Assembly (NCBI GenBank): GCA_003149065.1
Contig: QGFZ01000002.1
Location: forward strand, 784,899-848,898
Length of the DNA: 64,000 nucleotides
Source: Ruminococcaceae bacterium R-25
GTDB lineage: Bacteria; Bacillota; Clostridia; Saccharofermentanales; Saccharofermentanaceae
Direction of reading: 5' to 3'
The notes beneath the pieces are model-generated. The model did no database searches. It saw only the letters and a program-made list of their open reading frames with translations, and was not told the DNA's origin. Positions 3,390 to 43,157 of this stretch are shown here, in pieces. Made by a program: the position numbers and the translations under genes. The first letter of the stretch is position 1. The number at the start of each line of letters is the position of its first letter.

Positions 3390-3839
3390 ATGAACATACT
3401 CAAGGCTGAAGCATCAGATCTGAAGGAAATATTGGATCTCCAGTATCTCGCATACCAGAGCGAGGCGGCACTATTCGGCAACAAGGATATTCCGCCTCTA
3501 AAAGAAACTCTGGAAGAACTGACAGAAGAATTTAATAAAGGCATCATCTTAAAGTTGGTGGATAACGGTACTATCGTAGGTTCTGTCAGAGCGTTCGAAA
3601 AGAGGGGCACTGCTTATATCGGCAAGCTGATGGTGCATCCGGATTACAGGCGCCAGGGAAACGGCAGCATGCTGCTTAGAGCCATAGAGAAGTTTTATCC
3701 CGAATCAAGATATGAGCTTTTTACGAGCACCAGGAGCGCAGACAATATAAAGCTCTATGAATCATTAGGATACAAGATCTTCAAAGAACAGAAGATCGAT
3801 GATGAACTGACATTCGTTTATCTGCAGAGAAACGCTTAA
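3390..3839 (+). CDS. GNAT family N-acetyltransferase
   Basis: 149 residues starting at the ATG after AGGGAGGATACTGCT. It shows the complete small GNAT fold: N-terminal strand-helix, IGKLMVHPDYRRQGNGSML with the acetyl-CoA pyrophosphate loop RRQGNGS (about residues 85-92), and C-terminal KLYESLGYKIFKEQ. The general reaction is acetyl transfer from acetyl-CoA to an amine; the substrate is not identifiable. The gene ends 4 bases into the convergent ferritin-like gene. It probably has its own transcript, since it lies 54 bases after the transglutaminase-like gene. Confidence 0.85.
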   Translation: MNILKAEASDLKEILDLQYLAYQSEAALFGNKDIPPLKETLEELTEEFNKGIILKLVDNGTIVGSVRAFEKRGTAYIGKLMVHPDYRRQGNGSMLLRAIEKFYPESRYELFTSTRSADNIKLYESLGYKIFKEQKIDDELTFVYLQRNA

Positions 3840-25710: not shown

Positions 25711-26106
25711 TCAGAGAAGATCGCTTAGTTTCTTACCATACAGATAATCGTGAACGATTCCGTCGAACTCTTTCCACATGGGAAGAGTTTCGCATTTTTT
25801 GCGCCTTGTACAGTCGTAATTCTTGTCTGCAAGGCAAGCGACGGAACAGATAGTTCCTTCCATAAGAGTCAGTATTTCACCGACAGTATACTTCTCCGGC
25901 TTCTTAACGAGCTTATAGCCGCCGCCTTTGCCGCTTAAGCCCTTGATGAGTCCGCCTTCGACCATCTGCTTTACGATTATCTCCAGATATTTCTTGGAAA
26001 TCTCCTGTCTCTCAGCTATATCCTTGAGCGGAATATAGTTGCCGTCATTGTGCTGTGCCAGGTCGATCATTACGCGCAGGCCGTATCTTCCTCTAGTCGA
26101 GATCAT
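25711..26106 (-). CDS. Rrf2 family transcriptional regulator (CymR/IscR type)
   Basis: 131 residues from the ATG at 26104-26106, which follows GGGGGATATAG; an ATG at 26121 would add five residues. MISTRGRYGLRVMIDLA and the helix-turn-helix QEISKKYLEIIVKQM are classic Rrf2. The cysteine region is CSVACLADKNYDCTRRKKC, which could bind an Fe-S cluster as in IscR. It is divergent from iscS-iscU. Palindromes containing TTGACA occur at the iscS promoter and at two further sulfur promoters, so this is the likely regulator of the whole block, in the role of CymR in Bacillus. A half-site in its own promoter suggests autoregulation. Confidence 0.88.
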   Translation of the reverse strand: MISTRGRYGLRVMIDLAQHNDGNYIPLKDIAERQEISKKYLEIIVKQMVEGGLIKGLSGKGGGYKLVKKPEKYTVGEILTLMEGTICSVACLADKNYDCTRRKKCETLPMWKEFDGIVHDYLYGKKLSDLL

Positions 26107-26138
26107 ATCTATATCCCCCATAAGTTTTCATTTCACCC

Positions 26139-26176: not shown

Positions 26177-26210
26177 ACCTATTGACATAGTAGGAAATAG
26201 GTATTACCAT
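26177..26210 (+). promoter_or_regulatory. iscS promoter with Rrf2-type operator
   Basis: TTGACA (26182-26187) and TACCAT (26205-26210) are 17 bases apart. The -35 is embedded in the imperfect palindrome CCTATTGACATAGTAGG (26178-26194). A further AATAGGT follows on the right, giving a second inverted pair with ACCTATT. Confidence 0.75.
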
Positions 26211-27830: not shown

Positions 27831-27864
27831 ACCTATTGACATAATAGGTAAATAGGCGTAAAAT
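27831..27864 (+). promoter_or_regulatory. Promoter and Rrf2-type operator of the transsulfuration operon
   Basis: ACCTATTGACATAATAGGT (27831-27849) is a perfect inverted repeat with 7-base arms around GACAT. It contains the -35 TTGACA (27836-27841). TAAAAT (27859-27864) is the -10 at a 17-base spacing. Transcription should start near 27871, just ahead of the leader peptide. Confidence 0.82.
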
Positions 27865-27903
27865 CACTGCCATAATCAAAATCTATAACAGAAGGAGACA
27901 GTA

Positions 27904-27981
27904 ATGATGAAGTGCATGTGTTGTTGTATGTCATATACCCGGGCAATGAACAGTTGCTGTCTCAATTTGATTCGATGTTGA
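27904..27981 (+). CDS. Cys-rich leader peptide (25 codons)
   Basis: Too short for usual gene calling. The ATG at 27904 follows AGAAGGAGACAGTA, a strong ribosome site, about 33 bases after the predicted transcription start. The 25-residue product begins MMKCMCCCM and ends NLIRC; it contains seven Cys and five Met, an extreme composition. Four of the Cys codons, including three UGU in a row (27919-27927), come directly before a GC-rich segment CCCGGGCA (27938-27945) that can pair with the left arm of the terminator downstream. The peptide itself probably has no function; its translation would sense Cys-tRNA supply. It shares its RC-stop ending (CGATGTTGA) with the leader at 34099. Confidence 0.8.
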   Translation: MMKCMCCCMSYTRAMNSCCLNLIRC

Positions 27982-28011
27982 ATGGATCATACTGGCAATC
28001 GCGTTCTTAAA

Positions 28012-28047
28012 TGCCCGGAGCTTTATCAATAGCGCCGGGCTTTTTTT
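28012..28047 (+). terminator. Attenuator terminator of the transsulfuration operon
   Basis: GCCCGG, one mismatch, GC (28013-28021) pairs with GC, mismatch, CCGGGC (28032-28040) around a 10-base loop, followed by TTTTTTT. It lies 39 bases before the first structural gene, inside the leader. TGCCCGG (28012-28018) can instead pair with CCGGGCA of the leader reading frame. Confidence 0.85.
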
Positions 28048-28085: not shown

Positions 28086-29249
28086 ATGAGCAATATAAAT
28101 GATCTTAAACTTAATTCAGTTCTTATCCACGGCGGTATCGATGGCGACGAGATAACGGGTGCCGTAAACGTACCGGTCTACCAGACATCCACATATAAGC
28201 AGGACGGTCTTGGAAAGAACAGAGGCTGGGAATATTCCAGAACAGGCAATCCTACAAGAGCTGCATTGGAAAAGCTTATCGCAGACTTAGAGCAGGGAAA
28301 GCACGGACTTGCATTTGCATCAGGTCTTGCTGCGATCAATACGGTCTTATCACTTTTTAAGAGCGGCGATAAGCTCGTTGTATCAGACAATATCTACGGC
28401 GGAACTTTCCGTATACTTGATAACGTTTTCAAGAACTTCAATATTACATACAAGATCGTAAATACCTCTGATCTTGAAGCAGTTGAAAGTGCTATCGACG
28501 ATGACGTAAAAGCTATTTACATTGAGACTCCCGCAAATCCGCTTCTCACGATCACCGACATCGAAGCAGTATCCAAGATCGCAAAGAAGCACAATAAACT
28601 CGTCATCGTCGACAACACTTTCCTTACACCTTATTTGCAGCGTCCTCTTACATTAGGCGCAGATATCGTTATCCACAGCGGTACTAAATATTTAGGCGGC
28701 CACTCTGATACGATCTCAGGATTTGTAGTAGTTAATGATGATGCTCTGGCTGACCGTCTCTACTATCTCCAGAATGCGATCGGCGGCGTTCTCGCACCTT
28801 GGGACAGCTTCCTTATCATCAGGGGAATCAAGACTCTCGGCGTACGTATGGACAGACATGTTGCGAATGCCGAGAAGATCGCAAGATGGCTTGTCGAAAG
28901 CGGCTTTGTAAGCAAGGTTTACTATCCCGGTCTTGAGAGCGATCCGGGCTATGAAGTGCAGAAGAAGCAGGCTGACGGCGCAGGCGCAATGATCTCATTT
29001 GTACTTAACGATAAATACGACTATAAGAAATTTTTCGAAAACTTAAACCTCATCACTTTGGCAGAGAGTTTGGGCGGTGTTGAATCGCTCGTATGCCATC
29101 CCGCAACAATGACTCACGCTGCGATCCCGGCTGATATCCGTAAGGAAGTAGGCATTGTAGATGAACTCATCAGATTCTCGGTAGGCATTGAAGATGTTGA
29201 TGATCTTATCGCAGATCTCAAGCAGGCAATCGAAAACTCAGCAAAGTAA
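28086..29249 (+). CDS. Cystathionine gamma-lyase/synthase family PLP enzyme
   Basis: 387 residues, the full length for the Cys/Met metabolism PLP family. Signatures include YSRTGNPTRAALE, the PLP-binding SGTKYLGGHSD lysine (about 202) and the C-terminal ESLGGVESLVCHPATMTHA substrate-binding region. The family covers cystathionine gamma-synthase, gamma-lyase, beta-lyase and O-acetylhomoserine sulfhydrylase, which are hard to separate by eye. The next gene encodes a cystathionine beta-synthase-like enzyme, as in the Bacillus mccA-mccB pair, so a gamma-lyase releasing Cys from cystathionine is the best reading. It is the first gene after the Cys-codon leader and terminator. Confidence 0.88.
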   Translation: MSNINDLKLNSVLIHGGIDGDEITGAVNVPVYQTSTYKQDGLGKNRGWEYSRTGNPTRAALEKLIADLEQGKHGLAFASGLAAINTVLSLFKSGDKLVVSDNIYGGTFRILDNVFKNFNITYKIVNTSDLEAVESAIDDDVKAIYIETPANPLLTITDIEAVSKIAKKHNKLVIVDNTFLTPYLQRPLTLGADIVIHSGTKYLGGHSDTISGFVVVNDDALADRLYYLQNAIGGVLAPWDSFLIIRGIKTLGVRMDRHVANAEKIARWLVESGFVSKVYYPGLESDPGYEVQKKQADGAGAMISFVLNDKYDYKKFFENLNLITLAESLGGVESLVCHPATMTHAAIPADIRKEVGIVDELIRFSVGIEDVDDLIADLKQAIENSAK

Positions 29250-29264
29250 TAAGAGGTAATTACC

Positions 29265-30182
29265 ATGAATAACATATATGAAGATATCAGAAGCATGATC
29301 GGCAACACACCGATCTTAAAGATCAACCATATGGGCGTTAAGCCCGGTGTAAATATCTATGCAAAACTTGAATTGATGAACCCTGCAGGAAGCGTAAAGG
29401 ACCGTGTAGGCGTCTACATGATCGACGATGCAAAGAAGCGTGGAATCCTCAAAGAAGGCGGCACGATCATTGATGCCACAGCAGGCAACACAGGAATCGG
29501 AATTGCAGTTGCAGCGCTTAATCAGGGTATCAGAGTAATCTTTACGGTTCCGGAGAAATTCTCTATCGAGAAGCAGCAGGTTATGCGCGCTCTGGGCGCG
29601 GAGATAATTCACACATCAAGAGAAGAAGGAATGCTGGGTGCCGAGAGAAAAGCAGAAGAACTCTTAAAGCAGATCGAAGGCTCAGTTTCCTTAAGGCAGT
29701 TCAGAAATCCTGCAAATCCTCTGGCTCACTATGAGACAACAGGTCCTGAGATCTATTCACAGTTAGACGGAAATATCGATTATTTCGTCGCAGGTGCAGG
29801 TAGCGGCGGAACATTTTCGGGAGTTGTTAAGTACCTGAAAGAGCAGAACCCCGATATCACGGGAGTTCTCGCAGATCCTTACGGATCAACTATCGGAGGC
29901 GGAGAGCACTTCGATTACAACATTGAAGGAATAGGCAATGATTTCATCGCGGACACAATGGATATCACACTGGTGGATAAAGTCATCAAAGTAACTGATG
30001 ATGAAGCATTCGAGATGAGCAGACGCTTAGCAAAGGAAGAAGGCATCCTTGCCGGATCTTCTTCAGGCGCAGCGCTTGCAGCTGCATTTAAACTCGCATC
30101 TGAAATAGAGAGCGGAAACATAGTAACTGTCTTCCCTGACAGGGGCGACAGGTATCTTAGCAAAGGATTATTCGATCAATGA
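29265..30182 (+). CDS. Cysteine synthase/cystathionine beta-synthase family enzyme (MccA/CysK type)
   Basis: 305 residues, fold-type II PLP enzyme. The PLP lysine is in NPAGSVKDRVG (about 45), the substrate loop is TAGNTGIGIA, and the phosphate-binding loop is GAGSGGTFSG; GSSSGAAL lies near the C-terminus. It resembles MccA/YrhA, which makes cystathionine from O-acetylserine and homocysteine, though ordinary O-acetylserine sulfhydrylase activity cannot be excluded. It follows the gamma-lyase gene by 15 bases and overlaps metN by ATGA, so methionine uptake and its conversion to cysteine are in one operon. Confidence 0.88.
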   Translation: MNNIYEDIRSMIGNTPILKINHMGVKPGVNIYAKLELMNPAGSVKDRVGVYMIDDAKKRGILKEGGTIIDATAGNTGIGIAVAALNQGIRVIFTVPEKFSIEKQQVMRALGAEIIHTSREEGMLGAERKAEELLKQIEGSVSLRQFRNPANPLAHYETTGPEIYSQLDGNIDYFVAGAGSGGTFSGVVKYLKEQNPDITGVLADPYGSTIGGGEHFDYNIEGIGNDFIADTMDITLVDKVIKVTDDEAFEMSRRLAKEEGILAGSSSGAALAAAFKLASEIESGNIVTVFPDRGDRYLSKGLFDQ

Positions 30183-31186
30183 GCAACGTCTTTGAACTGA
30201 CAAACGTATATAAGACATATAAGAACGACGGCAAGGAATTTGAGGCGTTAAAGGACGTAAGCCTTGAAGTGCGCGAAGGCGAGATCTTCGGCATCATAGG
30301 CATGAGCGGCGCAGGAAAATCAACGCTGGTAAGAACGCTTAACCGTCTTGAGGAAGTAACTTCAGGCACTGTTAAGTTCTACGATAAAGATCTTGCTTCA
30401 TTAAAAGCTAAACAGCTTCGAGAAGTAAGACACTCCATCTCAATGATCTTCCAGGGGTTTAACCTCGTTAACCAGAGAAATGTTTTGTCTAATGTCGAGC
30501 AACCCCTGAAGATCGCGGGTGTACCCAGGAAAGAGCGTAAGGAGAAAGCCCTTCAGATGCTTGAAATCGTAGGACTCTCCGATAAAAAGGATGTTTTCCC
30601 GGCAAGGCTTTCGGGCGGTCAGAAACAAAGAGTTGCTATCGCAAGAGCACTTTCGGCAGATCCTAAGGTATTACTCTGCGATGAGGCAACGAGCGCATTA
30701 GATCCCAAGATAACAGGAGAGATATTAGACCTCCTTAAGAAGATCAATCTCGAGAGAAAACTTACGATAGTCATTATCACACATGAGATGTCGGTAGTAG
30801 AGAAGATCTGCGACCGCGTTGCGATCATCGATAGCGGTAATCTCGCAGAAGTTGGCGATGTAAAGGATGTATTCTCTAATCCTCAGTCGAATGCAGCGAA
30901 AAAACTCGTCTTCCCGAGCAATCCATTCGATCCTTCTGATCCTTCGGGAAAGATCGTCCGTCTTGTTTTCGACGGCACTCATTCGAGCGAGCCGTTTATC
31001 GCAAATCTCGTAAAAGAGACAGGCCTTACAGTCAATATTTTAAGCGCAAATACCAAGAGTGTCGGTGGTATCGGTTTTGGTCAGATGATAGTTGAACTTC
31101 CTTCATCTGATAAGGACCAGAAAACGGTCATCGACTTCTTTACAAAAGGCGGTCTTACTGTAACGGAGGTGGAAAAGCATGAGTGA
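30179..31186 (+). CDS. metN: Methionine ABC transporter ATP-binding protein MetN
   Basis: 335 residues. The ABC ATPase has Walker A GMSGAGKST (about 40), the Q-loop FQGFNL, the signature LSGGQKQRVAIARAL, and Walker B LLCDEATSALD with ITHEMSVV. The C-terminal 80 residues form the NIL domain typical of MetN (SSEPFIANLVKETGLTVNIL), which binds methionine and inhibits transport when the cell is replete. It overlaps cysK/mccA by 4 bases and metI by 8. The substrate-binding protein MetQ is encoded separately at 34349. Confidence 0.92.
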   Translation: MSNVFELTNVYKTYKNDGKEFEALKDVSLEVREGEIFGIIGMSGAGKSTLVRTLNRLEEVTSGTVKFYDKDLASLKAKQLREVRHSISMIFQGFNLVNQRNVLSNVEQPLKIAGVPRKERKEKALQMLEIVGLSDKKDVFPARLSGGQKQRVAIARALSADPKVLLCDEATSALDPKITGEILDLLKKINLERKLTIVIITHEMSVVEKICDRVAIIDSGNLAEVGDVKDVFSNPQSNAAKKLVFPSNPFDPSDPSGKIVRLVFDGTHSSEPFIANLVKETGLTVNILSANTKSVGGIGFGQMIVELPSSDKDQKTVIDFFTKGGLTVTEVEKHE

Positions 31187-31832
31187 ATATATAAGACAGG
31201 CAATAATATCAGGTATATTCGAAACATTTGAGATGACGTTATTTGCGTCTTTGTTCTCTTATCTCATCGGAATGCCTCTGGGTGTCATCCTTTATGCTAC
31301 ATCAAAGGGACGCCTTCTTGAGAACAAAATAGTCAATGCTGTTATAGGATTTATCGTAAATGTAACACGTTCACTGCCGTTTTTGATCTTACTGGTTTTG
31401 CTCATTCCGTTTACGCGTTTTGTGGTCGGATCTTCGATCGGTACCGTAGCATCGATCGTACCTCTTACAGTAGGTGCAATTCCGATCGTCGCAAGAATGG
31501 TCGAGTCATCACTTAACGAAGTAAATCCGGGAATCATTGAAGCTGCAACCTCCATGGGCGCTTCGCCCATATACACAATACTTCACTTCATTATTCCTGA
31601 GGCGACACCTTCTCTTCTTCAGGGTGGCGCGATCAATGTAGCTACAGTATTGGGATACTCCGCGATGGCAGGCGTAATCGGTGGAGGCGGACTCGGAGCA
31701 ATTGCTCTCCAATACGGCTACTACCGTTACCAGAAAGACGTTTTATGGACCACGGTCACACTTCTCATCATCATGGTAATGCTCATTCAGGAGATAGGAA
31801 TCAGATTGTCGAAGAAAACCAGAAAAGTATAG
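31179..31832 (+). CDS. metI: Methionine ABC transporter permease MetI
   Basis: 217 residues with five membrane segments and the MetI permease EAA-like region EVNPGIIEAATSMGASPIYTILHFIIPEATPSLL. NVTRSLPFLILLVLLIPFTR is the conserved early motif. Two copies should form the membrane channel with two MetN. It overlaps metN (ATGAGTGA) and is followed 11 bases later by the glutamate-cysteine ligase gene. Confidence 0.92.
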   Translation: MSEYIRQAIISGIFETFEMTLFASLFSYLIGMPLGVILYATSKGRLLENKIVNAVIGFIVNVTRSLPFLILLVLLIPFTRFVVGSSIGTVASIVPLTVGAIPIVARMVESSLNEVNPGIIEAATSMGASPIYTILHFIIPEATPSLLQGGAINVATVLGYSAMAGVIGGGGLGAIALQYGYYRYQKDVLWTTVTLLIIMVMLIQEIGIRLSKKTRKV

Positions 31833-31843
31833 GAGGTTAACAT

Positions 31844-33064
31844 ATGTCATTACATGAAGATATCGTTGAATACATCCGTTCAGGCGAGACGGACGGGCAG
31901 GCATTGGGACTTGAAGTGGAACACTTCGTCGTGAATGACGAAGGCGTCCAGATAGGGTTCGACGAGGTGACGTCGCTTATTAAGCAGGTTGCCGAGAATC
32001 TTCAGGCAAAGATAATATACATGGACGGATATCCTGTCGGTTACGTAACCGGCGGGTATTCTGTTACTTTGGAGCCCGCATGCCAGTTTGAGATAAGCAT
32101 CGACCCGAAGTCAGACATCGAATCGATAAAGCAGATCTATAAAGAGTTCCTTTTGCTGTGGATCCCTGTTTTCGCGAACTGCGGATATCACATCATAACC
32201 AAAGGCAATCTCCCTCTCGTGGAGTCAGGCGAGATCGATCCTGATGATATACCTCTGTCACACAAGAAACGTTATCAGTACATGGACGCTTACTTCAGAA
32301 ACAGCGGCAAATACGGCAAATACATGATGAGAGCATCTTCATCCGTCCAGATATCCGTCGATTACAGTTCGGAGGACGATCTCGTGCGTAAGCTCCTTAT
32401 CCTGCAAAAGATTTCTCCGATCCTCATGATCGCGCTCGAAAACAAGAGCTTTGAGGATTCCGTCATCGTGAAGGGTTCCAATAAAACACACCTTTTGAGG
32501 ATTCAGGAATGGAACGATCTGGATCCTTCCAGAACAGGTTTCTATCCGCATTCATTCGATGATGACTTCGGATACGACAAGATCGCAGATGTAATATCTG
32601 AGACCCCTCTGATACTGCTTACCGATGGCGGCGATACATCCTATGTCGGAAGCTCATCGGCACAAGATCTTATCCGTGACGGAATAGTGGATGAGAATCC
32701 CGCAAGTCCCAGGAAAGAGAAGCTTATTGAGCATTTTATATCGATGGGATTCTTCCATTTCCGCATCAAGAAATATATCGAGATCAGAGTGGCTGACAGC
32801 GTGCCTCTCGGCCGTGCGCTCAGTTATGTTGCACTCATTAAAGGATTGATCTATTCTGAGGAGAATCTTACAAGACTGGAAACGGATCTTGCTGATATTA
32901 CTTCCGTTGAACAGATCGAGGATGCTGTAGACAGCATTATCGTCTCCGGTCTGGATGCAAAAATATATGGTGACCAAACGGTTAGGGAGTGGTATAAATA
33001 TCTGCTGGAATTGGCAGATAATGCTCTTCCTGAAAATGAACGGGAGTATCTGAAGAATGTGTGA
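31844..33064 (+). CDS. Glutamate-cysteine ligase family protein (GCS2/EgtA type)
   Basis: 406 residues, start ATG after AGGAGGTTAACAT. It has the carboxylate-amine ligase fold: LGLEVEHFVVNDEG (metal-binding Glu residues), GGYSVTLEPACQFEISIDP, YMMRASSSVQISVDY, and HFRIKKYIEIRVADSVP. This matches GCS2 enzymes such as EgtA, which form gamma-glutamylcysteine from Glu, Cys and ATP. It overlaps the EgtC-like amidohydrolase by 8 bases and sits in a cysteine/methionine supply operon. Ergothioneine genes egtB and egtD are absent here. The likely product is gamma-Glu-Cys or a related low-molecular-weight thiol. Confidence 0.82.
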   Translation: MSLHEDIVEYIRSGETDGQALGLEVEHFVVNDEGVQIGFDEVTSLIKQVAENLQAKIIYMDGYPVGYVTGGYSVTLEPACQFEISIDPKSDIESIKQIYKEFLLLWIPVFANCGYHIITKGNLPLVESGEIDPDDIPLSHKKRYQYMDAYFRNSGKYGKYMMRASSSVQISVDYSSEDDLVRKLLILQKISPILMIALENKSFEDSVIVKGSNKTHLLRIQEWNDLDPSRTGFYPHSFDDDFGYDKIADVISETPLILLTDGGDTSYVGSSSAQDLIRDGIVDENPASPRKEKLIEHFISMGFFHFRIKKYIEIRVADSVPLGRALSYVALIKGLIYSEENLTRLETDLADITSVEQIEDAVDSIIVSGLDAKIYGDQTVREWYKYLLELADNALPENEREYLKNV

Positions 33065-33812
33065 ATTGTTCGGCGTATCATCCGACAGGACAATAGATGT
33101 AACCGCTGAGCTTAAAGAGTTCTTTAAGCACGGCGAGTTCAATCCCCATGGCTGGGGAATCGCATCATGGAATGATGCAGGAAAGATCACTATTGATAAA
33201 GAGCCTGTCGATTCTACGAAGAGCACATTGATAGAATACTATCTTTCTTCAGGCGTCAAATGCCGCGGGATCATTGCACATATCAGAAGAGCTACGATCG
33301 GATATGTCGATTATAAGAATACTCATCCGTTTATAGCGCACGATCCCAACTGGCGCGAGTGGGCATTTGCCCATAACGGTACGATATTTGAATCTGATGA
33401 ACTTCTTCCATATGCGGATATCCAGTGCGGAGCAACGGACAGCGAGAGGATCTTGCTTTATATTCTTGATCAGAATAAAAGAGCTGTTGATGAAGCATCA
33501 CGCTTCAAGATAATTGATTCTGTTGCAGTGAAGCTCTCAGATAAGAATAAGCTCAACTTCGTCGCATTCGACGGACAGGATCTCTATGTTCATAAGAATG
33601 AAGAAGGCACTATGTTCCGTAAGAATCACGACGGTTATGTTTATATCGCTACCAAGCCTCTGGATGACGGTGAATGGGAGGAGGTCCCTCTTAACAGGCT
33701 CCTGGTCTACAGGGATGGAAAACTGGTCTATGAAGGTAAGCCTCATGACCATACTTATATCCACGATGAAGAGCAGATGAACATGCTTTATCTGGGATAT
33801 TCTGAACTCTGA
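33057..33812 (+). CDS. Class II glutamine amidotransferase/EgtC-like hydrolase
   Basis: 251 residues. The N-terminal nucleophile Cys follows the initiator Met directly (MCELFGVSSD), as in class II (Ntn) amidotransferases, and NPHGWGIASW, IAHIRRATIG and FAHNGTI are the glutamine/gamma-glutamyl binding motifs. There is no synthase domain, so the enzyme probably hydrolyses a gamma-glutamyl bond on its own, like EgtC. Overlap with the ligase gene (8 bases) suggests that one makes and the other removes a gamma-glutamyl group on the same thiol. It is the last gene of the operon begun at 28086. Confidence 0.85.
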   Translation: MCELFGVSSDRTIDVTAELKEFFKHGEFNPHGWGIASWNDAGKITIDKEPVDSTKSTLIEYYLSSGVKCRGIIAHIRRATIGYVDYKNTHPFIAHDPNWREWAFAHNGTIFESDELLPYADIQCGATDSERILLYILDQNKRAVDEASRFKIIDSVAVKLSDKNKLNFVAFDGQDLYVHKNEEGTMFRKNHDGYVYIATKPLDDGEWEEVPLNRLLVYRDGKLVYEGKPHDHTYIHDEEQMNMLYLGYSEL

Positions 33813-34032: not shown

Positions 34033-34067
34033 TACCTATTGACATAGTAGGTAAGTACCGATATACT
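34033..34067 (+). promoter_or_regulatory. metQ operon promoter with Rrf2-type operator
   Basis: TACCTATTGACATAGTAGGT is the first 20 bases of a 21-base near-perfect palindrome (34033-34053) that contains the -35 TTGACA (34039-34044). TATACT (34062-34067) is the -10 at 17 bases. The arrangement is the same as at 26178 and 27831. Confidence 0.82.
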
Positions 34068-34098
34068 TACACCATCAACTCGAAAGGAGGCGTGAAAA

Positions 34099-34218
34099 AT
34101 GTATAAGACCACTAACACAGTAAACAGCATGATGTGTTGTCGAATGCTTAGCTCCCGGGCACGCAAGATGGCCACGGCGATGAGCAATGATGCTTCACGC
34201 CTTGCAAAACGATGTTGA
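34099..34218 (+). CDS. Cys/Met-codon leader peptide (39 codons)
   Basis: The ATG at 34099 follows CGAAAGGAGGCGTGAAAA, a very strong ribosome site, soon after the predicted transcription start near 34074. The 39-residue product contains six Met and three Cys; the run NSMMCCRM is encoded at 34123-34146 by adjacent ATG ATG TGT TGT. Eleven bases after the second TGT, the frame runs through CTCCCGGGCAC (34152-34162), whose exact complement GTGCCCGGGAG is at 34246-34256 and forms the left arm of the terminator. It ends RC-stop (CGATGTTGA), like the leader at 27904. No match to a functional protein; a sensing role through translation is the likely purpose. Confidence 0.78.
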   Translation: MYKTTNTVNSMMCCRMLSSRARKMATAMSNDASRLAKRC

Positions 34219-34245
34219 TGCTTTGATACGCAGATAACATGCCAT

Positions 34246-34280
34246 GTGCCCGGGAGTTAAATATAACACCCGGGCTTTTT
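34246..34280 (+). terminator. Attenuator terminator of the metQ operon
   Basis: GCCCGGG, mismatch, GTTA (34248-34259) pairs with TAAC, mismatch, CCCGGGC (34264-34275) around an AATA loop, then TTTTTC. It sits 69 bases before the metQ start. Its left arm plus flanking bases (34246-34256) is an exact 11-base complement of the leader segment at 34152-34162. Confidence 0.85.
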
Positions 34281-34348: not shown

Positions 34349-35233
34349 ATGAAAGCCAACATTCTTAAAAGAGTAATCGCATCTGCACTTTTACTTACAG
34401 TTACAGCATCTTTTGCAGCATGCGGCAAGACAGAGAGCACAACAGCAACTACTGCTGCAGCAGGAAGCAACACACAGTCCGAAGCTCAGGCTGATGTTCA
34501 GGCTAACGTAGTTCTCAAGGTAGGCGCAAACATCACACCTCACTCTGAGATCCTCGAAGTAGCAAAGCCGATCCTCGCAGAGCAGGGAATCACACTTGAG
34601 ATCGTAAAGCTCGAAGATTCCATTACACCTAACACAGGCGTTATCGAAGGAAGCCTTGATGCAAACTATTTCCAGCACGTTCCTTACCTCGAGCAGTTCA
34701 ACAAAGAGAATAATTCATCACTCGTTTCAGTTGGCGCAGTTCACTATGAACCCTTCGGCATCTATGCAGGTAAGACAAAAGATCTTAAGGATCTTCCGGA
34801 CGGCGCAATCGTAGCAGTTCCTAATAACGTAACTAACGAAGCAAGAGCACTTCTGCTCCTCGCACAGGAAGGCATCATCAAGCTTAAGGATGACGCAGGA
34901 ATCAACGCAACAGTAGAAGACATCGTAGAGAACCCTAAGAACATCAAGTTCAAGGAACTTGCACCCGAGCAGCTCGTAGCAGCACTTCCTGATGTAGACG
35001 TAGCAGTCATCAACGGTAACTATGCAATCGAAGGCGGCCTCCATGTAAGCCAGGCACTCGCAGTAGAAGCAAATGACGGACTTGCAGCTCAGACATACGG
35101 AAACATCATCGCAACATCTGCAGAGAAGGCAAATGATCCTGCAATCAAGAAGCTCGTTGAAGTTCTCCAGGGACCTGAAGTATCCAAGTACATCAAGGAA
35201 ACATACGACGGCGCAGTCGTTCCCCTCTTCTGA
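34349..35233 (+). CDS. metQ: Methionine-binding lipoprotein MetQ
   Basis: 294 residues. Lipoprotein signal with lipobox SFAAC (Cys about 25), then an Ala/Thr-rich linker and the NlpA/MetQ domain: VLKVGANITPHSEILEVAKP, DANYFQHVPYLEQFN, AVHYEPFGIYAGKTKDLKDL and AVPNNVTNEARALLLLAQEG. It binds D- or L-methionine for MetNI (30179-31832). It is the first gene of its own operon, behind the second leader peptide and terminator, so the transporter is expressed from two promoters under the same control. The start follows AAAAGGAGATAAAAACC. Confidence 0.93.
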   Translation: MKANILKRVIASALLLTVTASFAACGKTESTTATTAAAGSNTQSEAQADVQANVVLKVGANITPHSEILEVAKPILAEQGITLEIVKLEDSITPNTGVIEGSLDANYFQHVPYLEQFNKENNSSLVSVGAVHYEPFGIYAGKTKDLKDLPDGAIVAVPNNVTNEARALLLLAQEGIIKLKDDAGINATVEDIVENPKNIKFKELAPEQLVAALPDVDVAVINGNYAIEGGLHVSQALAVEANDGLAAQTYGNIIATSAEKANDPAIKKLVEVLQGPEVSKYIKETYDGAVVPLF

Positions 35234-35248
35234 TAAGGAGCAATAACC

Positions 35249-36409
35249 ATGATCGGATTTGAGTACTATAACCCCGCGAAGATCGTCTTCGGTGAAGGGT
35301 CTGAAAAGAGTCTTGCAAAGCTCCTTAAGCAGAACAACGTAAAGTCACTCCTATTAGTAACCAGCGGAGATTTTGTTGAGACACTCGGTATTTACGAAGT
35401 TATCAGGGACGCCGTAAAGGAATTGAACATCAAGTTTTCCGAGAGCAGGGAAGTGGTACCAAATCCGAGCATTGAGCTCGTAAGAAAACTTGTAGAACAA
35501 GGTAAGACCGACGAAGTAGATTTTGTTTTGGCTGTCGGTGGAGGAAGCTCCATCGACACCGCCAAAGCAATCGCTATCGGAATCCCCTATGACGGAGATG
35601 TCTGGGACTTCTTCTCAAAAGGCGCAGTCCCGGAGAAGGTATTGGGAATCGGCGTAATCGCTACAACAGCTTCTTCAGGATCTGAGACATCCAATGCAGC
35701 TATCCTCTCATACGGTGAGTGGAAGAAGGGCTTTGAAGATGACAGGATCATTCCGAAGTTCGCGATAATGAACCCGAGATATACCGTTAATCTTCCCGAA
35801 TACCAGACGTATGTAGGCATCGCAGATGTTCTTTCACATTTGCTCGAAAGATATTTCTCCGATGCGAAGAATTCAGATACAACGGACTATCTGATCGAAG
35901 GCGCGATAAGAGCTCTTCTGGTAAATGCAAAGAGGCTTATCGAAGATCCCAAGGATATCAATGCCAGAGCTGAGATTCAGTGGCTCGCATCAGTGTCACA
36001 CAACAATTTCCTTGATGCAGGAAGAATAGCTGACTGGGGATCACACCGCATCGAACATGAACTGTCCGCACAATACAACATCACACACGGTGAAGGAATG
36101 GCAATTGTTTTCGTCGCATGGACGAAGTACATTGCGCAGATCAAGCCCTGGAGACTGGCATTGCTCGCTTCAAGGGTTTACGGCAAAGATCCGTACGATT
36201 TCGATGAGAAGGAGAGAGCACTTCTTTTGTCAGAAGAACTCGAGAGATTTTTCAAGAACTTAGGACTTAAGACAAGACTTTCCGAACTCGGAATCACAGA
36301 TAAAGACTTTGAGACAATGGCTGCACGTGCAACGGCCGGAGGCAACGTAGGACACTATGTTCCCTTAGATGCACAGAAGATCACAGACATACTTAAACTT
36401 GCACTTTAA
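35249..36409 (+). CDS. Iron-containing alcohol dehydrogenase (group III)
   Basis: 386 residues, full length. It has the nucleotide-binding loop LAVGGGSSIDTAKAI (about 92-106), TTASSGSETSNAA, and the metal-binding His residues of family III dehydrogenases in ADVLSHLLE, SHRIEHELS and HGEGMAIVF. It resembles NADPH-dependent butanol dehydrogenases (BdhA/YugJ). It lies 15 bases after metQ in the Rrf2/attenuator-controlled operon, which is unexpected; removal of an aldehyde or 2-keto product from amino-acid breakdown is one possible explanation. The start follows AAGGAGCAATAACC. Confidence 0.88.
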   Translation: MIGFEYYNPAKIVFGEGSEKSLAKLLKQNNVKSLLLVTSGDFVETLGIYEVIRDAVKELNIKFSESREVVPNPSIELVRKLVEQGKTDEVDFVLAVGGGSSIDTAKAIAIGIPYDGDVWDFFSKGAVPEKVLGIGVIATTASSGSETSNAAILSYGEWKKGFEDDRIIPKFAIMNPRYTVNLPEYQTYVGIADVLSHLLERYFSDAKNSDTTDYLIEGAIRALLVNAKRLIEDPKDINARAEIQWLASVSHNNFLDAGRIADWGSHRIEHELSAQYNITHGEGMAIVFVAWTKYIAQIKPWRLALLASRVYGKDPYDFDEKERALLLSEELERFFKNLGLKTRLSELGITDKDFETMAARATAGGNVGHYVPLDAQKITDILKLAL

Positions 36410-42799: not shown

Positions 42800-43157
42800 G
42801 TTTTAACAACAAAATATATCAAGTATAGACGATGTTTATCAGAGTCTTAGGTGATTTTACGGACCACTCCATCAGGAGTCGAGGCCATACGGACAGCCGG
42901 GTCCACTGCCGATGATCGGTATTTCCGATCTATTGATTGAGTTAAAAGCTCAGTTTTATAAGTTGGTTACTTTATAACCGAAATGCGTAATTTGCGCAGA
43001 CTTGTGAAATGGTCAATAAGAGTAGTAAAAGTAGTATTGCTATATAGACTCTATATACTGGATATTCTCCATACTGGTGTTTTCTACACCTATATGGGAA
43101 CATCATAAGACCAAGAGAACTAAGCGCAAGTTGTGTAATTACAGCTTGCGCTTTTTG
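42800..43157 (+). promoter_or_regulatory. Structured leader RNA with terminator before the polyamine operon
   Basis: The leader contains several clear hairpins. GGACC (42861-42865) pairs with GGTCC (42900-42904) around ACTCC-ATCA-GGAGT and GGC/GCC. Others are GATCGG/CCGATC (42914-42930), GGTTA/TAACC (42965-42979), TGCG/CGCA (42984-42998) and GGTGT/ACACC. It ends with AAGCGCAAG (43122-43130) pairing with CTTGCGCTT (43145-43153) and a T-rich tail, 18 bases before the start codon. TTTGCGC (42991-42997) can pair with GCGCAAG of the terminator, giving an alternative antiterminator. No known riboswitch class is recognised. Confidence 0.65.

What the first reader, a model, noticed from the sequence alone, without database searches (positions are those of the whole stretch)
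27871..28047. Cys-codon leader peptide and attenuator controlling a cysteine-synthesis operon
A 25-codon frame with strong ribosome site has seven Cys codons, three UGU in a row. Ten bases after that run, CCCGGGCA lies in the frame and can pair with TGCCCGG, the left arm of an intrinsic terminator 39 bases before the transsulfuration genes. A ribosome stalled for Cys-tRNA would leave the segment free to pair and prevent termination. In Firmicutes this job is normally done by T-box or repressor, so classical leader-peptide attenuation for cysteine would be unusual. A similar principle is described for actinobacterial Cys-rich leaders.
Basis: partly seen in the sequence, partly recalled or inferred. 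Interest (0 to 1): 0.93.

Follow-up and report, generated by a model that had tools for sequence, protein, structure and literature searches.

The report
Cysteine leader-peptide switch in rumen Clostridia
In front of cysteine and methionine genes in this clostridial genome and related gut bacteria sits a conserved unit of a short cysteine-rich reading frame, RNA segments that can pair in alternative ways and a likely transcription terminator, which is predicted to let the genes be read only when cysteine-loaded tRNA runs short.

Summary
Relatives support it: the leader stands before 54 of 56 usable close orthologs of the first gene, and the antiterminator covaries. The core AUG UGU UGU CGA AUG...CGGGC also heads other Met/Cys genes: three copies in this genome, two in this window, and more in other Clostridia including Butyrivibrio.
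(1) The leader's ribosome-binding site can pair with the end of its own frame (P1), also supported across relatives; it encloses the antiterminator strand and may be the protector. (2) The -35 lies in an Rrf2/CymR-like palindrome found four times in the genome: at the three leaders and before iscS.
Best reading: Cys-tRNA-sensing, ribosome-mediated attenuation combined with an Rrf2-type repressor. The kind is known; I found no report of a Cys version in Firmicutes. Stalling, readthrough and repressor binding are inferred, and equilibrium folding does not reproduce the switch in most leaders.

The parts
27831..27849 (+). Palindrome ACCTATTGACATAATAGGT overlapping the -35; likely Rrf2-family (CymR/IscR-like) repressor box
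   Evidence: 3 in window, 0.46 expected, 0 of 100 shuffles reach 3; 4 in the whole genome; 49 of 51 CGS-type leaders, 76 of 100 others
27836..27864 (+). sigma-70-type promoter TTGACA-17-TAAAAT
   Evidence: 11 of 12 matches
27904..27981 (+). Cys leader frame MMKCMCCCMSYTRAMNSCCLNLIRC* (start probably the second ATG, 27907)
   Evidence: frame intact in 53 of 54 orthologous leaders
27919..27927 (+). UGU UGU UGU run (presumed stall site)
   Evidence: a UGU UGU leader in 54 of 56 usable orthologous loci, although the window's long frames use UGC 147, UGU 68
27895..27905 (+). P1 5' strand: SD and start region
   Evidence: pairs with 27953-27963
27953..27963 (+). P1 3' strand inside the leader frame
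27938..27945 (+). antiterminator 5' strand CCCGGGCA
28012..28018 (+). antiterminator 3' strand UGCCCGG, shared with the terminator's left arm
27948..28006 (+). inner antiterminator helices 27948-27951/28003-28006 and 27953-27958/27994-27999 (the latter would compete with P1); predicted, weak support
   Evidence: structure; swap test 54 of 2000 in CGS-type and 2 of 2000 in other leaders
27967..27986 (+). P2, small hairpin over the stop codon (possible pause hairpin)
   Evidence: swap test 0 of 2000 in both sets
28013..28047 (+). intrinsic terminator and T-run
   Evidence: not listed by the simple scanner
28086..33812 (+). presumed operon: cystathionine gamma-synthase/lyase-type gene, cysK-type gene, metN, metI, GCS2-type glutamate-cysteine ligase, class II glutamine amidotransferase
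   Evidence: one transcript is assumed from spacing
34034..34052 (+). same palindrome on the promoter of the second unit
34099..34218 (+). second leader frame MYKTTNTVNSMMCCRMLSSRARKMATAMSNDASRLAKRC*
34088..34202 (+). P1 of the second unit: AGGCGTGA 34088-34095 with TCACGCCT 34195-34202
   Evidence: sequence
34152..34256 (+). antiterminator of the second unit: CTCCCGGGCAC 34152-34162 with GTGCCCGGGAG 34246-34256, extended by ATGGC 34168-34172 with GCCAT 34241-34245
   Evidence: sequence
34248..34280 (+). terminator of the second unit, GCCCGGG/CCCGGGC and T-run
34349..35233 (+). MetQ/NlpA lipoprotein gene behind the second unit
25711..26121 (-). Rrf2-family regulator gene (CymR and IscR models match below their cut-offs), divergent from iscS; candidate repressor
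26178..26194 (+). fourth copy of the palindrome, between the Rrf2 gene and iscS

Best explanation
This is most likely a transcription attenuator that senses charged tRNA-Cys through the position of a ribosome on its UGU-rich leader frame. Proposed working: when Cys-tRNA is short, the ribosome would stall on the UGU run. From there it would keep the leader's ribosome-binding site from folding onto the end of the frame (P1) and leave CCCGGGCA just outside its footprint. CCCGGGCA would pair with UGCCCGG as soon as that is made, and RNA polymerase would read on into the cysteine operon. When Cys-tRNA is ample, the ribosome would run through CCCGGGCA and leave; P1 would then close, trapping CCCGGGCA in its loop and shutting the leader's own initiation, and the terminator would form. 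A Rrf2-type repressor probably acts on the promoter before this step. Shown by sequence and comparison: the frame, the capacity for both pairings and their support across relatives, the terminator-like hairpin, the box, the genes. Inferred: translation, stalling, readthrough, the protector role of P1, and the repressor's identity and signal.
For: UGU UGU leader before 54 of 56 usable close orthologs of the first gene; frame intact in 53 of those 54. Antiterminator on alignment A1 (46 leaders, non-redundant set of 59): 74.6% of cells paired against 67.9 shuffled, 32 cells changed on both sides against 19.8, covariation 0.174 against 0.077 (sd 0.010), each 0 of 500 shuffles; 5 of 9 pairs changed on both sides (2 of 500 shuffles reach it); further pair types less clear (40 of 500). 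Two of the covarying pairs lie outside the terminator stem. Swap test, 46 leaders: antiterminator own -12.39 against -10.73 swapped (0 of 2000), P1 -13.84 against -10.37 (0 of 2000); controls SD x post-stop 512 of 2000, Arg-Ala segment x frame tail 101 of 2000. In 87 non-CGS leaders P1 -13.21 against -10.97 and antiterminator -17.53 against -17.14, both 0 of 2000; controls 277 and 3 of 2000. GGGC lies 16 bases after the Cys run in 31 of 46 and 87 of 90 leaders, just past the footprint recalled for a stalled ribosome. In L034, L060, L105 and L177 the CGGGC motif is kept in a shifted reading frame, so RNA and not peptide is conserved there. Genes behind 153 retained leaders: 51 CGS, 46 MetY type, 16 MetQ type by start motif, further sulfur genes. 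For this leader the terminator is favoured by 7.3 kcal/mol without a ribosome, 1.5 with a ribosome on the Cys run and the RNA upstream of it blocked.
Against: The energies shift less if only the ribosome's footprint is masked: terminator favoured by 3.2 or 5.9 kcal/mol with it at the first or second Cys, and 2.2 with it at the stop codon, so stalled and finished states are not well separated; in the second leader the same figures are -0.2 (none), -0.3, +2.9, -4.7 (upstream blocked) and -2.2 (stop). Equilibrium folding of transcripts cut before the terminator's right arm predicts the antiterminator at 0.99 for this leader without a ribosome and a median of 1.00 in the none, stalled and stop states for 90 non-CGS leaders; stalling raises it in only 25 of 46 and 12 of 90, so the switch must be kinetic or topological, or the model is incomplete. 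P1 exceeds 0.5 before the antiterminator strand emerges in 37 of 46 and 58 of 90 only. In non-CGS leaders the antiterminator hardly varies (helix in 90 of 90, swapped mean 89.4), and one control there is not clean (3 of 2000). Swap tests do not remove shared ancestry. L064 has no leader, L075 has lost the Cys frame, and of three genes at 65-70% identity two (L065, L067) show no Cys frame. No expression data.
Confidence: 0.75

Rival explanations
1. The Rrf2-type repressor alone controls these promoters; the leader is a constitutive or minor element, or the terminator simply tunes expression.
For: The palindrome sits upstream of 49 of 51 and 76 of 100 leaders and occurs only four times in the genome.
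Against: The pairings are kept across relatives. Of the 26 leaders that fail the box pattern, 24 are non-CGS; by eye about ten of those 24 still show a near version, and about 14 show none, so the leader also stands under other promoters. Repression explains neither the UGU run nor the antiterminator.
Confidence: 0.09
2. A nascent-peptide arrest system: the peptide MCCRM...RA itself stalls the ribosome in response to cysteine, a thiol or another signal, rather than lack of Cys-tRNA.
For: M-C-C-R-M and R-A are invariant in 18 aligned leader peptides, which were however found by that motif; 92 of the 120 listed database relatives carry MCCRM, 23 have no Cys-Cys pair in the form sought.
Against: Codons are constrained too: CGA follows the run in 37 of 46 leaders and precedes the terminal Cys in 45 of 50 positions, while CGA is 13 of 578 Arg codons in the window's long frames. 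R-A lies in the antiterminator strand and is given up where the motif shifts frame. The residues before MCC are not conserved. This window's leader itself has CCCM, not CCRM.
Confidence: 0.11
3. P1 is the main switch: it regulates initiation of the leader (ribosome loading), so the unit reads general translation or start-site access rather than Cys specifically.
For: P1 has the stronger swap statistic in both sets (z -8.1 and -9.2 against -6.7 and -4.2).
Against: The Cys run at nearly fixed spacing from the antiterminator and mostly Cys/Met genes behind it point to Cys.
Confidence: 0.05

Closest known systems
Classical ribosome-mediated attenuators (E. coli trp, his; recalled)
   Same: Leader frame with a run of regulated codons, terminator, competing antiterminator whose 5' strand lies just past the stall site, a third pairing that can act as protector
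   Different: Here the candidate protector strand is the leader's own SD and start region, so closing it would also shut leader initiation; the stop codon does not lie over the antiterminator strand; amino acid is Cys; an Rrf2-type box sits on the promoter
Cys leader peptides of Actinobacteria (PMC1262725, passages seen)
   Same: Short frames with Cys runs before cys genes
   Different: There the run is near the stop codon and no conserved terminator hairpin was found; here the run is upstream, followed by antiterminator and intrinsic terminator
Polycysteine leaderless short ORFs of mycobacteria (Canestrari 2020; seen only as a reference in PMC13236596; paper not held)
   Same: Cys-responsive attenuation by a poly-Cys short frame, by its title
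   Different: Those are leaderless by title; here there is a strong SD that may be part of the mechanism. Details not read
uORFC-8-2 motif before cysS in Rhodobacterales (PMC8632094, passages seen)
   Same: Predicted ribosome-mediated Cys attenuator with U-run terminator; two tandem Cys codons, usually at codons 14 and 15. In the non-CGS leaders here the first Cys of the pair is codon 14 in 50 of 102
   Different: Alphaproteobacteria, one gene (cysS), UGC dominates, Cys codons lie in a stem; shared sequence was not tested
Cys-specific T-box (Clostridium perfringens cysK, cysP1, cysP2; PMC2940859, passages seen)
   Same: Same signal (Cys-tRNA), same kind of genes, premature termination
   Different: tRNA binds the RNA directly (recalled), no leader peptide; no T-box match at these leaders
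His leader peptides before hisS/hisZ in bacilli (PMC2965389, passages seen)
   Same: Leader-peptide attenuation in Firmicutes
   Different: Histidine and other genes; no Cys case in the passages seen
CymR (Rrf2) control of Cys metabolism in B. subtilis and S. aureus (PMC2940859, background passages)
   Same: Rrf2 protein and Cys genes; Rrf2 - cysteine desulfurase - scaffold order as in C. perfringens cpe1786-1784
   Different: Here the likely box is coupled to an attenuator; the window's regulator scores below the CymR and IscR cut-offs

Membership tests
Ribosome-mediated transcription attenuator (trp/his type) | Short frame with SD and a run of one amino acid's codons | tested here: met
   frame intact in 53 of 54 leaders; translation itself not shown
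Ribosome-mediated transcription attenuator (trp/his type) | Intrinsic terminator between leader and first gene | tested here: met
   sequence, covariation; 150 of 162 candidates, some chance rows included, have a predicted hairpin below -7 kcal/mol before a T-run; the consensus scanner lists none
Ribosome-mediated transcription attenuator (trp/his type) | Antiterminator that competes with the terminator and starts just past the stall site | tested here: met
Ribosome-mediated transcription attenuator (trp/his type) | Protector pairing that prevents the antiterminator when the ribosome is absent or gone | tested here: inconclusive
   P1 supported; energies partly favour the role in this leader, equilibrium folding does not in most others
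Ribosome-mediated transcription attenuator (trp/his type) | Genes controlled belong to the amino acid of the codon run | tested here: met
Ribosome-mediated transcription attenuator (trp/his type) | Ribosome stalls at the run on starvation and transcription reads through | not testable with these tools
   needs reporters, ribosome profiling, 3'-end mapping
T-box riboswitch | T-box fold and T-box sequence in the leader | tested here: not met
   no Rfam T-box match in the window or at the two leaders at E up to 10; five T-box matches in the genome, one over the cut-off, before trpE, pheS, trpD, aspS and an XRE/cupin-like gene (genes named from sequence by recall)
Actinobacterial Cys leader peptides | Cys run near the stop codon, no conserved terminator | tested here: not met
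   run is at codons 6-8 of 25 (a lone Cys is the last codon), terminator present; definition from PMC1262725 passages
uORFC-8-2 | Consensus sequence and structure of that motif | not tested
   its alignment was not at hand; no Rfam match at the leaders, whether or not Rfam holds that motif
CymR/IscR regulon | Regulator passes the CymR or IscR equivalog cut-off | tested here: not met
   Rrf2 superfamily passed (112.9, cut-off 73.3); CymR 94.4 (195), IscR 91.3 (207.55)
CymR/IscR regulon | Regulator binds the palindrome | not testable with these tools
   box found in the Rrf2/iscS gap and at the three leaders only (exact pattern)

The most novel reading that the evidence does not exclude
An undescribed, compound control module runs much of sulfur metabolism in a set of rumen Clostridia. 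It joins an Rrf2-type box on the -35 to a Cys-tRNA-sensing leader with a fixed core (AUG UGU UGU CGA AUG - 3 codons - CGGGC), in which the leader's own ribosome-binding site is the protector strand: completing the peptide both terminates transcription and locks out the next ribosome. The module stands before synthases, MetQ-type lipoproteins, symporters and a LysR-type regulator, takes the place of Cys T-boxes, and may move between lineages (one copy in a Succinivibrio MAG).
Probability: 0.53. Interest if true: 0.85.

Novelty: new variant of a known kind. Interest (0 to 1): 0.74.

Why it matters
[quoted passage not shown] It brings classical leader-peptide attenuation for Cys to Firmicutes and gives a searchable signature for sulfur-regulon genes in unannotated genomes. 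The SD-as-protector design, in which one helix would control both termination and leader initiation, is directly testable and would be instructive for attenuators in general. Isolates, not only MAGs, are among the hits by record title: Butyrivibrio sp. WCD3002 and YAB3001, Lachnospiraceae bacterium AC2029, Ruminococcaceae bacterium KHP2 and AB4001.

Tried and rejected
T-box or other known RNA family: the three gathering-level Rfam matches of the window lie elsewhere; at E up to 10 the two leaders gave only matches far below the families' cut-offs. Known peptide family: no NCBIfam match to four leader peptides at E up to 10; of 157 database relatives the 120 listed bear no Pfam domain and no name but 'hypothetical protein' (three of them; the rest none).

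Cys-rich metal-binding miniprotein: thought unlikely because little but MCCRM and RA is fixed in 18 aligned peptides and RA is given up where the CGGGC motif shifts frame (L034, L060, L105, L177).

A pairing partner for the core UGUUGUCGAAUG: none found in the post-stop region or the frame tail (swap tests; the core barely varies, so the test is weak). RNAalifold on A1 found only 3 pairs, all of the antiterminator, probably because P1 and antiterminator cross and the SD columns are misaligned. A fixed-register count of P1 was spoiled by SDs with an extra AG, so the register-free swap test is used.

Equilibrium modelling of the switch mostly fails. Class-wide survey: the exact pattern is in 6 of 291 genomes, five of them among the eight of the own genus in that sample and one of another genus, so the unit is patchy and not general to Clostridia. 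The box count returned 0 of 54 through a wrong regular expression of mine; one search is used.

Weak points of scripts: leaders were located by TGTTGT, so 'UGU UGU in every row' holds by construction within the sets; the free test is 54 of 56 loci. In L041 and L045 the script took GAAC for the motif and set the antiterminator window four bases early; in L031 and L054 one base early. In one search the post-stop stretch was cut at a fixed length and lost part of the antiterminator strand in some rows (for example L017, L018, L033). Terminators were found by a simple RNAfold rule. Rows dropped: of 162 candidates I judged L124, L133, L143, L150, L196, L200, L218 and L225 chance by eye and dropped L127 (run of N); the 87 non-CGS leaders (90) also exclude duplicates and rows without a found terminator or motif. 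From the orthologs I left out L056, L058 and L063 (contig ends) and the more distant genes L065-L074, told in the full report.

Full report
Observation. The frame is far outside chance for the window. The start is probably the second ATG (27907), since relatives keep that one.

Relatives. The window lies in a 3.07-Mb genome held as G000. Contig lengths shared between genus genomes and records (393527 for Ruminococcaceae bacterium KHP2, 157747 for Saccharofermentans sp. RUI264) indicate a Saccharofermentans-like rumen lineage; this is an inference. The first downstream gene has matches in 85 of 85 genomes of the genus at E below 0.001; 61 listed places reach E 1e-160 and one partial gene adds a 62nd. 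Three of the 62 are cut off by contig ends (L056, L058, L063) and three are only 65-70% identical (L065-L067). Of the remaining 56, 54 have a leader with UGU UGU. L064 has none. In L061 the gene stands behind another PLP gene, and leader-like remains (CCCGGGCA, CGATGTTGA, terminator) lie before that one. The frame runs from an SD-linked start through the Cys codons to a stop in 53 of the 54; L075 has a frame-breaking deletion. Of the three at 65-70%, L066 has a Cys-rich frame (MCCCM) and L065 and L067 show none; of seven genes at 40-48% (L068-L074) three (L068, L069, L071) carry the MCCRM leader.

Antiterminator. On an alignment of 46 leaders, the non-redundant part of 59, the helix columns 95-103/204-212 give a covariation score of 0.174 against 0.077 in shuffles (0 of 500); slid versions score 0.015-0.086; 5 of 9 pairs changed on both sides (2 of 500); further pair types 14 against 12.1 (40 of 500). 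The tool warns that related sequences can beat shuffles without structure. The variable pairs next to the terminator stem (columns 102-205 and 103-204) change as A-U, U-A, G-C: CGGGCA with UGCCCG, CGGGCUG with CAGCCCG, CGGGCG with CGCCCG. L051 and L062 have changed the segment on both sides (CCGGACAGA with UUUGUUCGG; CCGAACAGAU with AUUUGUUCGG). In four leaders of 136 (L034, L060, L105, L177) the motif is kept though its reading frame has shifted (the other five rows on that list are same-frame substitutions, mis-set windows or a changed motif). The terminator is supported likewise (90.6% of cells paired, 5 pairs changed on both sides).

P1. The minimum-energy fold of the ribosome-free leader pairs the SD and start (27895-27905) with 27953-27963 inside the frame. 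Across 46 leaders the SD region pairs better with its own frame tail than with tails of relatives (-13.84 against -10.37, 0 of 2000), while two control pairings stand out less or not (512 and 101 of 2000). In 87 leaders before other genes it is -13.21 against -10.97, 0 of 2000; controls 277 and 3 of 2000, so one control there is not clean. Helices of at least 7 uninterrupted pairs: 35 of 46 (swapped mean 19.3, most 28) and 53 of 90 (swapped mean 31.0, most 44). Examples: GGAGACAGUAA with UUGCUGUCUC; AGGCGUA with UAUGCGCCU; AGGCGUGA with UCACGCCU; AGACGUGAG with CUCACGUCU. P1 encloses CCCGGGCA in its loop, so P1 and the antiterminator cross; they would be exclusive or strained.

A family. The core pattern is present in 49 of 85 genomes of the genus, with no hit for the reversed pattern in any: three copies in this genome, two of them in this window and one at C1:1063558. 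In named genomes at least 120 stretches hold a slightly narrower pattern, the scan stopping at its limit; the 80 titles seen are mostly MAGs called Lachnospiraceae, Ruminococcaceae, Clostridia or Saccharofermentans, with Butyrivibrio and some hits that I judge chance. In an even sample of the class only 6 of 291 genomes match, 5 of the own genus: the unit is patchy. The first genes behind 153 retained candidates were scored by short motifs in their starts: 51 CGS, 46 MetY/OAHS-like, 16 MetQ/NlpA-like, 6 of a second synthase type, 3 of a third, 2 each of cysK, LysR, symporter and iron alcohol dehydrogenase, 23 other or none; of the 23, six had no gene in reach and about eleven begin like the same lipoproteins by eye. 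In the window the genes are CGS-type, cysK-type, metN, metI, a GCS2-type glutamate-cysteine ligase and a glutamine amidotransferase; MetQ, presumably the partner of metNI, has its own copy of the leader at 34099.

Two control levels. The palindrome CCTA-N9-TAGG (near variants allowed) lies upstream of 49 of 51 CGS-type and 76 of 100 other leaders; about ten of the 24 misses show a weaker version by eye. CCTATTGACNNNNTAGG occurs four times in the genome: before the three leaders and between the Rrf2 gene and iscS. The window's Rrf2 protein passes the superfamily cut-off, with CymR and IscR models next but below theirs. That it binds the box is inferred. In C. perfringens four genes of such a group, the Rrf2 gene, desulfurase and scaffold among them, are induced on Cys limitation (PMC2940859, passages).

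Mechanism. The Cys run ends 16 bases before GGGC in 31 of 46 CGS-type leaders (13 in 9, this leader's type) and in 87 of 90 others. With the footprint usually given for a ribosome (about 15-16 bases past the first P-site base; recalled), a ribosome waiting at one of the last two Cys codons leaves CGGGC free, and one about two codons on begins to cover it. In this leader, antiterminator instead of terminator costs 7.3 kcal/mol without a ribosome; 3.2 and 5.9 with a ribosome at the first and second Cys; 1.5 if the RNA upstream is blocked too; 2.2 with a ribosome at the stop codon. In the second leader these are -0.2, -0.3, +2.9, -4.7 and -2.2. So a stalled ribosome that also keeps the SD from pairing shifts the balance the right way, but masking the footprint alone does so less or not, and the stop-codon state is not well separated. 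Transcripts cut before the terminator's right arm prefer the antiterminator in most leaders even without a ribosome (medians 0.84 and 1.00). The switch would then rest on order of events: P1 can close before the distal strand is made (over 0.5 in 37 of 46 and 58 of 90). A small hairpin over the stop codon is also supported (0 of 2000 in both sets) and might be a pause hairpin; this is a guess.

Codons. Leaders were located by TGTTGT, but 54 of 56 usable loci had it, where the window's long frames use UGC twice as often as UGU (147 to 68). CGA follows the run in 37 of 46 (not in this leader, which has AUG) and precedes the terminal Cys in 45 of 50 counted positions, although it makes up 13 of 578 Arg codons. 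I found no pairing partner. Slow decoding is one possible reason; it is unexplained.

Known or new. Searches of an open-access library led, in the passages I saw, to Cys leaders without terminators in Actinobacteria (PMC1262725), a predicted Cys attenuator before cysS in Rhodobacterales (PMC8632094) and His leaders in bacilli (PMC2965389); none of the listings showed one for Cys in Firmicutes. One search was swamped by surnames and decides nothing. Most subscription papers are not in that library. The kind is known; the Firmicutes Cys version, the SD-as-protector design and the Rrf2 coupling appear new within these limits.

Noticed in passing
window 34034-34280: Complete second copy of the unit before a MetQ/NlpA lipoprotein gene, with a longer antiterminator (extra ATGGC/GCCAT helix).
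   Followed up: yes
window 26178-26194: Fourth genome copy of the palindrome, between the Rrf2 gene and iscS, with no core-pattern leader there: Fe-S assembly may share the repressor.
   Followed up: partly
L079 (G000:C1:1063558): Third copy in the genome, between a LysR-type gene and a second PLP sulfhydrylase-like gene (named by eye).
   Followed up: partly
L184 about 3742-3770 (minus strand): A MAG titled Succinivibrio carries a MCCRM leader before a MetY-like gene, near metQ- and metNI-like genes: transfer or binning error.
   Followed up: partly
L127 1047-1202 (G034:C98): Two leader cores 127 bases apart in tandem; the stretch holds a run of N.
   Followed up: no
L130, L152, L188, L209, L212: Leaders without the CCTA-TAGG box share by eye another upstream motif like TTATCNCNNNCGATAA, perhaps a LysR-type site: the leader seems portable between promoters.
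   Followed up: no
leader cores, e.g. window 34135-34146 and 34210-34218: Favoured codons UGU UGU CGA AUG and terminal CGA UGU UGA with rare CGA; reason unknown.
   Followed up: partly
non-CGS leaders: First Cys of the pair at codon 14 in 50 of 102, as reported for uORFC-8-2 (codons 14 and 15): possibly a shared spacing rule, such as room for one initiating ribosome behind the stalled one.
   Followed up: no
window 35249-36409; L185, L202: An iron-type alcohol dehydrogenase gene (named by eye) follows metQ here and stands directly behind a Cys leader in L185 and L202; link to Cys unclear.
   Followed up: no
window 42861-42912: Rfam match to SpF59 sRNA (RF02440, 69.5 bits), a streptococcal family, in this clostridial window.
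   Followed up: no
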